From: Solirubrobacterales bacterium
GTDB lineage: Bacteria > Actinomycetota > Thermoleophilia > Solirubrobacterales > Solirubrobacteraceae
Assembly (NCBI GenBank): GCA_019240115.1
Contig: JAFAYV010000050.1
Coordinates: 1-49,951 of the forward strand
Direction of reading: 5' to 3'
Length of the DNA: 49,951 nucleotides
Shown one piece after another: positions 47,389 through 49,809 of the stretch. Below the pieces are notes generated by a model. It had not been told where the DNA came from. It searched no databases and saw only the letters and a program-made list of their open reading frames with translations. Position numbers and translations under genes: made by a program. The stretch's first letter is position 1, and each line of letters starts with the position of its first letter.

Positions 47389-48003
47389 TCAGTTCGCGCG
47401 GCGGGGGAGAAACACGGCTGGGCCGCGCAGCGCCTCGACGATCTCGCCGTCGAGGTTGAGCGCGGCGCCTAGGTCCTCGACCGACTCGAAGCCGTGCACG
47501 CGGGCGCGCGTCTGCACGATCCAGGTCGCGAGGTCGTCGTCGACGAGCGGGAGCTGGGCGAGCGCCGCGGCCGACGCGTTGTTGACGTCGACGAGGCCCG
47601 CGGAGTGCGCGCCCGGCACGTCGGGCCGTCCGATCCCCATCTCGAGCGCGAGCTCCGGGTGCTCGCGCGCCAGCCGGCGCGCCCGCTCGCGATCGTGCAG
47701 GCGGATCTCCGCCGCGTGGCGGGCCTCGTCGAGCGGGGTGTAGCCGGGGAGCCGGGGCGGGGGGCTCAGCTGCGGCTGGCCCGGGCCTCCGACGCTCGCC
47801 GAGGTCACGACCGCGCCCACCCAGGAGAGGCTGATCAGCCACCCCAGGTGCAGGCTCGCCAGCACGATGCCGAGGACCGCCATCACCATCCACAGCACTC
47901 CCAGCAGCATCCATCCGCGCCGCCCCGCCTTCATCCCGGCGTACAGCGGCACCACCGTCCCCAGCACCGGGATCAGGGAGAAGTACCGCCAACCCCGGCG
48001 CAT
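47389..48003 (-). CDS. Membrane protein with helix-hairpin-helix domain
   Basis: About 204 residues. An N-terminal part with two or three hydrophobic segments (RYFSLIPVLGTVVPLYAGMK, WMLLGVLWMVMAVLGIVLAS, LISLSWVGAVV) is followed by a Pro-rich linker, a charged stretch (LHDRERARRLAREHPELALE), and a ComEA-type helix-hairpin-helix: LVDVNNASAAALAQLPLVDD, then ARVHGFESVEDLGAALNLDG. Such domains bind DNA or other partners. No partner is known here. I choose the ATG at 48003 because AAGGA lies seven bases before it; an upstream ATG at 48027 adds MGTVKDVE. The frame continues to 49539 only as antisense to leuA. Confidence 0.8.
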   Translation of the reverse strand: MRRGWRYFSLIPVLGTVVPLYAGMKAGRRGWMLLGVLWMVMAVLGIVLASLHLGWLISLSWVGAVVTSASVGGPGQPQLSPPPRLPGYTPLDEARHAAEIRLHDRERARRLAREHPELALEMGIGRPDVPGAHSAGLVDVNNASAAALAQLPLVDDDLATWIVQTRARVHGFESVEDLGAALNLDGEIVEALRGPAVFLPRRAN

Positions 48004-48067
48004 CTCGACGTCCTTGACCGTGCCCATCCCTACAGGATGCCACCGACGATCGCTCGGGTGGGCTTGA

Positions 48068-48073
48068 TATGTT
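48068..48073 (+). promoter_or_regulatory. Probable -10 hexamer of the leuA leader transcript
   Basis: TATGTT ends eight bases before the leader ATG at 48082. The transcript would begin at or beside that ATG. Confidence 0.5.
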
Positions 48074-48081
48074 CGAGACCG

Positions 48082-48138
48082 ATGGCTCTCCGCCTCGAAC
48101 GTGCGCTCCCGCTTCTCCTCCCCCTTCGGGGGGAATAG
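48082..48138 (+). CDS. leuL: Leucine-rich leader peptide of leuA (attenuator)
   Basis: The 18-residue peptide MALRLERALPLLLPLRGE has seven leucines, five of them in LPLLLPL near the end, using CTC and CTT codons. It ends with TAG 72 bases before leuA. The rule for such peptides is that ribosomes stall at Leu codons when leucyl-tRNA is scarce, which changes downstream RNA folding and raises leuA expression. No Shine-Dalgarno; TATGTT lies eight bases upstream, so it is likely leaderless. Leader peptides of this type before leuA are known in actinobacteria; this copy is too short to be found by size-based gene calling. Confidence 0.75.
   Translation: MALRLERALPLLLPLRGE
48119..48134 (+). promoter_or_regulatory. 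UUCG-capped hairpin inside the leader
   Basis: TCCCCC-TTCG-GGGGGA forms a perfect 6-bp stem with a very stable UUCG tetraloop. It overlaps the last Leu codons and the end of the leader peptide, so a ribosome reading the leader must open it. A second small stem (GCGGC/GCCGC, about 48147-48163) follows. Confidence 0.6.
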
Positions 48139-48210
48139 CGCGCCGGCGGCCGCTTCAAGCCGCGAACCAGGACCGAGAAGCAGCCAGTTCGAACGAGACA
48201 AGGAGAGACC

Positions 48211-49809
48211 ATGACCCCGCCTGACGACCCCAACCGAGTCCTGATCTTCGACACGACGCTGCGCGATGGCGAGCAGTCGCCGGGGATCTCGCTGAACGCG
48301 TCGGAGAAGCTCGAGATCGCCCAGCAGCTCGCTCGGCTCGGCGTCGACATCATCGAGGCCGGCTTCCCGATCGCCTCGCCGGGCGACTTCGAGGGCGTCC
48401 AGGGGATCGCCCGCGCTGACTACGGTCCCGCCCATCCGATCGTCGCCGGGCTGGCGCGCACGCACGTGGCCGACGTCGACGCCGCCTACAACGCCGTCAA
48501 GGACGCCGCGCGGCCGCGCATCCACACCTTCATCTCGACCTCGGACATCCACATCGAGCATCAGCTGCAGTCCACCCGCGAGGACGTCAAGGGCCAGGCC
48601 CGGGCCGCGGTGGCGCACGCCAAGCGATACCTCGACGACGTCGAGTTCTCGCCGATGGACGCCACCCGGGCGGACATCGACTACACCGCCGAGGTCATCC
48701 AGATCGCGATCGACGAGGGCGCCACGACGATCAACATCCCCGATACCGTCGGCTATGCGGTGCCCGAGGAGTACGCGGCGTTTCTGGCCGGTCTCTACGA
48801 GCGCGTGCCGGGGCTGCGCGACGTCGTCCTCTCGGTTCACTGCCACAACGACCTGGGGTTGGCGGTCGCCAACACGCTCGCGGGCCTGCGGGCGGGCGCG
48901 CGCCAGGTCGAGTGCGCGGTCAACGGGATCGGCGAGCGGGCGGGCAACGCGTCGATCGAGGAGATCATCATGCTCCTGCACACCCGCCAGGCCGACGTGG
49001 GCCTGCACACCGGAGCCAATACGCGCGAGATCGCTCGCACCTCGCGAATGGTCTCGCGGCTGACCGGCTATCCGGTGCAGCCCAATAAGGCGATCGTCGG
49101 GCGCAACGCGTTCGCCCACGAGTCGGGCATCCACCAGGACGGCGTGCTGAAGGAGCGGCGCACCTACGAGATCATGGACGCCGAGACGGTCGGCCTCGAC
49201 GACGTCAACTCGATCGTGCTCGGCAAGCACTCCGGGCGCCACGCGCTCGCGCAGGCACTCACCGAGCTCGGCTTCGAGCTGAAGGGCCAGACGCTGAACA
49301 CCGCCTTCCAGCGCTTCAAGGAGATCGCCGACAAGAAGAAGCAGGTGACCGCGATGGACCTCGAGGCGCTCGTCACCGACGAGCTGCGCTCCGAGATCGC
49401 CGGCTACACCCTGGAGTGGTTCGACGTCGAGGCCTCCTCGCGCCGCCCCCCGCACGCGACCGTCTGCGTGACCGGTCCCGACGGCGACCAGCTGACCGGG
49501 TCGTTCACCGGCGACGGCCCGGTCGACGCGATCTTCCACGCGATCAACGCCGCCACGGCGGTCGACGCCAAGCTGCGCGAGTTTCGGGTCGACGCGGTCA
49601 CCGGCGGACGGGACGCGCTCGGCGAGACGTCGGTGCAGGTCGAGGTCGCGGGCGTCAGCGGCGCGGGCCAGGGCGTCTCCACCGACATCCTCGAGGCGGC
49701 GGCGAGCGCCTACGTGCGAGCGCTGTCGGCCGCGGTGCGCCGCCAGGGCGCTCTCGCCGAGGCCGAGTCGGCGAGCGCCGAGGTCCCGGAGGTCGTGCGC
49801 GCGCCCTAG
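48211..49809 (+). CDS. leuA: 2-Isopropylmalate synthase
   Basis: 532 residues. Catalytic barrel: FDTTLRDGEQSPGISLNASE (metal Asp and the RDGEQ motif), VEFSPMDATRAD, NIPDTVGYAVPEEY, VHCHNDLGLAVANTL (HxH metal site), and CAVNGIGERAGNASIEE. Then AHESGIHQDGVLKERRTYEI, and a C-terminal leucine-sensing regulatory domain (~400-520). It joins acetyl-CoA and 2-ketoisovalerate, the first committed step to leucine. ATG with AAGGAG five bases before it, one of the better ribosome sites here. Its control is probably by the upstream leader peptide and by leucine feedback. Confidence 0.96.
   Translation: MTPPDDPNRVLIFDTTLRDGEQSPGISLNASEKLEIAQQLARLGVDIIEAGFPIASPGDFEGVQGIARADYGPAHPIVAGLARTHVADVDAAYNAVKDAARPRIHTFISTSDIHIEHQLQSTREDVKGQARAAVAHAKRYLDDVEFSPMDATRADIDYTAEVIQIAIDEGATTINIPDTVGYAVPEEYAAFLAGLYERVPGLRDVVLSVHCHNDLGLAVANTLAGLRAGARQVECAVNGIGERAGNASIEEIIMLLHTRQADVGLHTGANTREIARTSRMVSRLTGYPVQPNKAIVGRNAFAHESGIHQDGVLKERRTYEIMDAETVGLDDVNSIVLGKHSGRHALAQALTELGFELKGQTLNTAFQRFKEIADKKKQVTAMDLEALVTDELRSEIAGYTLEWFDVEASSRRPPHATVCVTGPDGDQLTGSFTGDGPVDAIFHAINAATAVDAKLREFRVDAVTGGRDALGETSVQVEVAGVSGAGQGVSTDILEAAASAYVRALSAAVRRQGALAEAESASAEVPEVVRAP

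What the first reader, a model, noticed from the sequence alone, without database searches (positions are those of the whole stretch)
48068..48210. Leucine attenuator before leuA with a leaderless leader peptide and UUCG hairpin
MALRLERALPLLLPLRGE is too leucine-rich for chance, ends upstream of leuA, and its Leu codons run into a 6-bp UUCG hairpin. A further possible pairing is TCGAAC (48095-48100) with GTTCGA (48187-48192), just before the leuA ribosome site, which suggests control of translation start. Attenuators are known before actinobacterial leuA; the apparent absence of an untranslated leader for the peptide is the notable part.
Basis: partly seen in the sequence, partly recalled or inferred. 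Interest (0 to 1): 0.6.

Follow-up and report, generated by a model that had tools for sequence, protein, structure and literature searches.

The report
Leucine attenuator locking leuA start
Upstream of the leucine-synthesis gene leuA lies a tiny leucine-rich reading frame, probably starting at the very first base of the RNA, whose first letters pair with leuA's own ribosome-binding site, so that a ribosome held up for lack of leucine probably frees leuA for translation.

Summary
Confirmed and extended. The 18-codon leader ORF (48082-48138, 7 Leu), the UUCG hairpin and the TCGAAC/GTTCGA pairing are present. The element is conserved before leuA across the window's family (121 of 146 genomes) and order. 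It is a leucine-responsive leader of the actinobacterial leuA 'LEU element' kind (Seliverstov 2005). New is which strands pair: the leader's first 10-13 nt, its AUG included, pair with leuA's Shine-Dalgarno and start codon (P0), and the Leu codons pair with a GAGAAG segment upstream (P1b). Own-versus-swapped pairing is sharp for P0 (z -12.8 at leader nt 1-13, 0.2 just upstream, 118 leaders) and repeats in 70 new leaders. A second clade pairs Leu codons directly with the SD. Mechanism, inferred: translational attenuation; no intrinsic terminator found. Against: a ribosome-occlusion fold simulation does not separate real leaders from chimeras.

The parts
48068..48073 (+). -10 promoter hexamer TATGTT of the leader transcript (predicted)
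   Evidence: sequence; TANNNT ending 6-12 nt before the leader start in 48 of 52 leaders. No mapped 5' end.
48082..48138 (+). leader peptide ORF (leuL) MALRLERALPLLLPLRGE*, probably leaderless
   Evidence: conserved in relatives; no SD before it.
48082..48091 (+). P0 5' strand: AUGGCUCUCC, the leader's first ten nucleotides including its AUG
   Evidence: Pairs with 48202-48212 in the MFE fold; own-versus-swapped and sister-pair tests.
48095..48100 (+).
48111..48117 (+). P1b 5' strand GCUUCUC, inside the Leu codon run
48119..48134 (+). P2, 6-bp UUCG hairpin overlapping the last Leu/Pro codons
   Evidence: paired in the 47 aligned leaders apart from one mismatched cell; UA-for-CG compensatory change in L054. 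Not in the window's own MFE fold.
48146..48163 (+). P3 hairpin GCGGC...GCCGC, nearly invariant
   Evidence: 100% paired; one compensatory change (GC to CG, L051). Not in the window's own MFE fold.
48175..48181 (+). P1b 3' strand GAGAAGC, partner of the Leu codons
48187..48192 (+). P1a 3' strand GUUCGA
48200..48205 (+). Shine-Dalgarno AAGGAG of leuA
   Evidence: SD-like 4-mer before 115 of 118 leuA starts.
48202..48212 (+). P0 3' strand GGAGAGACCAU (A48208 bulged): the leuA SD and start codon
48211..49809 (+). leuA, 2-isopropylmalate synthase, bacterial type
   Evidence: NF002086 and TIGR00973 above their cut-offs.

Best explanation
A leucine-responsive translational attenuator. Transcription starts at or next to the leader AUG, so the first codon of an 18-codon Leu-rich peptide is the 5' end of the mRNA (inferred from the -10 position, the lack of an SD and the edge of the pairing signal). 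Folded, the leader is closed by three helices that flank P2 and P3: P0, the first ten nucleotides with leuA's SD and AUG; P1a; and P1b, Leu codons with GAGAAGC (shown by comparison, not by experiment). With leucine plentiful, a ribosome that loaded at the 5' AUG during transcription runs through to the stop codon, leaves nt 1-37 free, and the helices close, hiding leuA's ribosome-binding site (inferred). With Leu-tRNA short, the ribosome stalls on the Leu codons and blocks the 5' strands of P1a and P1b; a second initiating or queued ribosome must also cover the 5' end to open P0 (inferred from folding: window cost to open the SD 7.6 kcal/mol free, 6.0 stalled, 1.8 stalled with the 5' end covered, 7.8 at the stop codon). 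leuA is then translated.
For: P0 coevolution: own pairing beats swapped pairing in 48 leaders (z -7.2; z -4.6 without the start codons) and in 70 leaders not used to form the hypothesis (z -9.5; z -5.6). Sister pairs: 18 better/4 worse, 25/7 and 20/9. The signal peaks at leader nt 1-13 against leuA about -21..+8 and is gone 13 nt upstream and 7-10 nt downstream. In full-length folds P0 holds 5.9 expected pairs against 3.2 in chimeras (p 6e-9). P1b: 19/3, 21/11 and 18/12. Leu run: third bases vary, the amino acid does not; CTT is 33% of leader Leu codons against 3.4% in the leuA stretches held. No terminator-like site in 47950-48400. Core model matches in 121 of 146 family genomes.
Against: The simulated switch is no larger in real leaders than in interspecies chimeras (p 0.66), so folding does not itself show a leucine-specific switch; the pyrimidine-rich Leu run hides almost any SD. 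A stalled ribosome alone barely opens P0 in the window. The window's MFE fold replaces P2 and P3 by another inner fold. P1a fails some sister-pair tests (15/8; 15/18 at distance cut 0). As related by PMC1262725, leader-codon changes before S. coelicolor leuA had effects not consistent with classical attenuation. P0 also hides the leader's own AUG. P3's near-invariance is more than this model needs. No expression data of any kind.
Confidence: 0.68

Rival explanations
1. Transcription attenuation: leader translation decides between termination and read-through in the leader, by an intrinsic terminator or by Rho.
For: Leu-run leaders before other actinobacterial leuA genes (L119, L137, L139) are followed by a hairpin and a T run. 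Rho use cannot be excluded.
Against: No terminator-like site in 47950-48400 and no T run after P2 or P3 in the leaders printed; the strongest coevolution is with leuA's SD and AUG, which a terminator does not need.
Confidence: 0.12
2. The RNA is read by a protein or small molecule: P3 and its flanks are a recognition site and leader translation is secondary. Seliverstov et al. preferred a protein for the LEU element.
For: P3 is nearly invariant across 47 leaders (4 of 5 pairs never vary) and its surroundings are strongly conserved. PMC1262725 argues for a protein.
Against: The peptide frame, the Leu identity, the CTT bias and the leaderless start are all conserved, which a bare binding site does not need.
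Confidence: 0.12
3. P0 is only a 5'-terminal clamp that stabilises the mRNA or holds leuA at a constant low level, without leucine control.
For: The fold simulation shows no switch beyond chimeras.
Against: Leaves the conserved Leu run and the P1b pairing unexplained; a second clade replaces P0 by direct Leu-codon x SD pairing, as expected if the Leu codons must control the SD.
Confidence: 0.08

Closest known systems
LEU element before actinobacterial leuA (Seliverstov et al. 2005, PMC1262725; read: two of three parts of the main text, without figures)
   Same: Leu-run leader ORF before leuA, no intrinsic terminator, leuA SD hidden by the leader.
   Different: There the base stem is Leu codons with the SD, plus a pseudoknot. 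Here, in 96 of 118 leaders (group 1, which includes the window), the SD and AUG coevolve with the leader's 5' end (P0) and the Leu codons pair upstream of the SD; Leu x SD is not supported in group 1 (z -1.0) and is strong only in the other 22. The gene is the bacterial-type leuA (TIGR00973), not the TIGR00970 type that stands behind the Streptomyces-type leader in locus L115. A homologous origin is not shown.
S. lividans LeuL1, MRFGLLLLSCRGEGL (PMC8079986; passages)
   Same: Leaderless Leu-run peptide before leuA, no typical terminator.
   Different: In 21 unique Streptomycetaceae-type leaders the strongest pairing with the SD region is leader nt 10-22 (-17.4 kcal/mol), and the 5' strand varies too little to test P0 (6 distinct).
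Leaderless Cys-codon short ORFs of M. smegmatis (Canestrari 2020; paper not held; seen only as cited in review PMC9031893)
   Same: Leaderless uORF with a run of the regulating amino acid acting on the downstream gene.
   Different: Other amino acid and gene; whether a 5'-end x SD helix exists there was not examined.
E. coli-type leu/trp leader attenuators (recalled)
   Same: Stall on codons of the end product.
   Different: Those use an SD-led leader and an intrinsic terminator; neither was found here.

Membership tests
LEU element (Seliverstov 2005) | Leader ORF with a run of Leu codons before leuA | tested here: met
LEU element (Seliverstov 2005) | Base stem formed by the Leu codon run and the leuA SD | tested here: not met
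   Group 1, which includes the window: own -11.85 against swapped -11.65 (z -1.0), while P0 has z -11.4; met in energy in group 2 (Leu x SD -18.2, z -2.2).
LEU element (Seliverstov 2005) | Conserved pseudoknot or alternative hairpin | tested here: inconclusive
   P2 loop x the 8 nt after P3 shows no coevolution (z 0.0); the published pseudoknot strands were not available as sequence.
Ribosome-mediated amino acid attenuator (works like) | Run of codons for the end product in a translated leader | tested here: met
   for the run; translation inferred from amino-acid conservation with third-base variation.
Ribosome-mediated amino acid attenuator (works like) | Mutually exclusive structures selected by ribosome position | tested here: inconclusive
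   change in SD opening on simulated stalling, but not specific against chimeras.
Classical transcription attenuator | Intrinsic terminator before the gene | tested here: not met
   none found in 47950-48400.
Leaderless mRNA | Start codon at or within a few nt of the transcript 5' end | not testable with these tools
   Indirect support only.
Any Rfam 15 family | Covariance model match at the gathering score | tested here: not met
   0 matches in the window; only chance-level matches of unrelated families.

The most novel reading that the evidence does not exclude
A distinct attenuator design in Solirubrobacterales: the 5' terminus of the mRNA is at once the start codon of the sensing peptide and the antisense of the regulated gene's ribosome-binding site. 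Each transcript then makes one choice while it is being made: whether the first ribosome is still on, or queued behind, the Leu codons when the leuA start emerges. Evolution has exchanged which leader segment locks the SD (5' end in one clade, Leu codons in another) while keeping peptide and hairpins.
Probability: 0.55. Interest if true: 0.65.

Novelty: new variant of a known kind. Interest (0 to 1): 0.5.

Why it matters
It gives leaderless transcripts, common in actinobacteria, a concrete regulatory use: the 5' end itself is the switch strand. It makes the long-open question of how actinobacterial leuA leaders work, where Leu-codon mutants in Streptomyces gave puzzling results (as told in PMC1262725), directly testable with compensatory mutants of a 10-bp helix. 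It also supplies an RNA element for an order of soil bacteria that Rfam 15 does not flag in this window.

Tried and rejected
The ribosome-occlusion fold simulation looked supportive until interspecies chimeras gave the same switch, so it is not used as proof. Leu run x SD as the main lock (the LEU-element model) was rejected for the window's clade. A P2-loop x post-P3 pairing was rejected (z 0.0). In Streptomycetaceae-type leaders, 31 unique parsed leaders first gave leader 5' end x SD z -2.5, but several leuA starts in that set looked misassigned; with 21 well-parsed leaders it is z -0.4 and not testable for lack of variation. One number (old-set P1a, own 2074) is an artefact of an empty segment; the old-set P1a value used is that.

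Rows dropped: one search kept only leuA loci with at least 59% identity and a match beginning by residue 10, and set exact duplicates aside; one search left out L049, L073 and L078; one search lost L055; one search dropped L009, L052, L056 and L074 of 52 (uncertain starts), leaving 48. One search tried 157 loci, failed on 19, set aside 52 as duplicates of the first set or of each other, leaving 86; one search excluded 16 more (spacing, promoter, SD or peptide length), leaving 70. Because that filter asks for a -10 hexamer, the 70 are no independent test of the promoter.

Full report
What is there. The window belongs to a Solirubrobacterales-type genome (closest named leuA loci are Solirubrobacterales and Conexibacter). 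No Rfam family matches at the gathering score.

Not chance. 0 of 3000 dinucleotide shuffles of the region give so Leu-rich a mini-ORF. Relatives found with the LeuA protein carry the same leader: typical peptides are MALRLDLRLLLLPPRGE and MSFRLDLRLLLLPLRGE. In 118 curated leaders LLL is present in 118 and LLLL in 104; the third bases of the Leu run vary while the amino acid does not; CTT makes up 33% of leader Leu codons but 3.4% of those in the leuA stretches held. Two stop positions exist: after the hairpin (82 end in RGE) or in its loop (25 end in LPR).

Distribution. A covariance model of the Leu run, P2 and P3 matches 121 of 146 genomes of the family, 151 of 299 sampled from the class and 20 of 296 sampled from the phylum. 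Matches with E below 1e-8 lie in the window's order; those elsewhere in the class and phylum are weak. The window's genome has one match, at the leuA leader. Of 28 genus genomes, the three without a match (G002, G008, G025) have a leuA match starting at a contig edge, a C-terminal fragment, and only a distant homologue.

Start of the RNA. A TANNNT hexamer ends 6-12 nt before the leader start in 48 of 52 leaders, with about 0.04 expected per position. An SD-like 4-mer precedes only 9 of 118 leaders but 115 of 118 leuA starts. This is the architecture of a leaderless ORF; no 5' end has been mapped. Leaderlessness of this leader is known in S. lividans.

Structure. P2 and P3 are paired in the 47 aligned leaders, apart from one mismatched cell, with one compensatory change each. 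In the window's own MFE fold the inner part is another arrangement (-56.8 against -47.5 kcal/mol for the P2+P3 version).

Coevolution. I compared each leader's pairing with pairings in which the 3' strand came from another species. In 48 leaders: P0 z -7.2 (z -4.6 without either start codon), P1a z -3.2, P1b z -5.0, Leu run x SD z -2.5. Independent nearest pairs on a LeuA tree (distance cut 0.3): P0 18 better/4 worse, P1b 19/3, P1a 15/8, Leu x SD 13/10. Seventy further leaders, not used to form the idea, gave P0 z -9.5, P1a z -4.8, P1b z -5.3, Leu x SD z -1.5; sister pairs at cut 0.2: P0 25/7, P1a 22/11, P1b 21/11, Leu x SD 19/14; at cut 0: P0 20/9, P1a 15/18, P1b 18/12. Of the two control pairings, leader 5' end x middle was not favoured (18/16 and 10/24), while P1a x SD was slightly favoured at cut 0.2 (23/12; 18/13 at cut 0). 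Sliding the 13-nt window shows P0 begins at the leader AUG: z 0.2 for -13..-1, -12.8 for the first 13 nt, -0.2 from nt 11 on. In full-length folds P0 has 5.9 expected pairs against 3.2 in chimeras.

Two designs. In 22 leaders of another clade (DSLALLLLLPLRGE type) the Leu codons pair with the SD itself (-18.2 kcal/mol) and P0 is weak (z -2.1); in the other 96, including the window, P0 is strong (z -11.4) and Leu x SD is not favoured (z -1.0). The 22 were picked by a peptide pattern, not from a tree.

Mechanism. Best reading: translational attenuation. In simulated folds of 48 leaders, opening the SD costs on average 4.5 kcal/mol free, 4.9 with a ribosome at the stop, 3.3 with one stalled on the Leu codons and 2.7 if the 5' end is covered too; for the window 7.6, 7.8, 6.0 and 1.8. 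Chimeras behave the same (p 0.66), so this is an illustration, not evidence. No intrinsic terminator was found; Rho cannot be excluded.

Known and new. The LEU element of Seliverstov et al. is the closest kind. It differs in which strand holds the SD. Library searches for 'LEU element' with leuA returned only that paper, and Thermoleophilia with attenuator returned none; other searches are. In 21 unique Streptomycetaceae-type leaders the -10 position also fits a leaderless start (21 of 21), but P0 could not be tested there. A uORF before leuA has ribosome footprints in M. abscessus (PMC4974804, passage).

Noticed in passing
L299 (G024:C50:3600-5700), 622-823 and 1745-1945: The leuA leader is duplicated about 1.1 kb upstream; the outer copy has lost its leader ATG, and between the copies lie minus-strand genes that look like a RelE/ParE-type toxin and its antitoxin (recalled resemblance, not searched).
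   Followed up: partly
window 47389-48028, minus strand: A gene of about 213 aa with a ComEA-like helix-hairpin-helix end (recalled resemblance; no NCBIfam match) lies between serA and the leader and starts 54 nt from it on the other strand; in L299 a serA-like gene lies directly before the outer leader copy.
   Followed up: no
L119, L137, L139, upstream of leuA: Other actinobacterial lineages with bacterial-type leuA have short Leu-run ORFs followed by a GC-rich hairpin and a T run, that is, classical-looking transcription attenuators.
   Followed up: no
window 48140-48169 and alignment A2: P3 and the sequence around it are nearly invariant across an order, more than a simple attenuator helix needs; possible protein or tertiary contact.
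   Followed up: no
leader peptides, e.g. L045, L046, L048, against L001: The stop codon sits either in the P2 loop (peptide ends LPR) or after P2 (ends RGE), in the same frame, so the terminating ribosome's position differs between clades.
   Followed up: no
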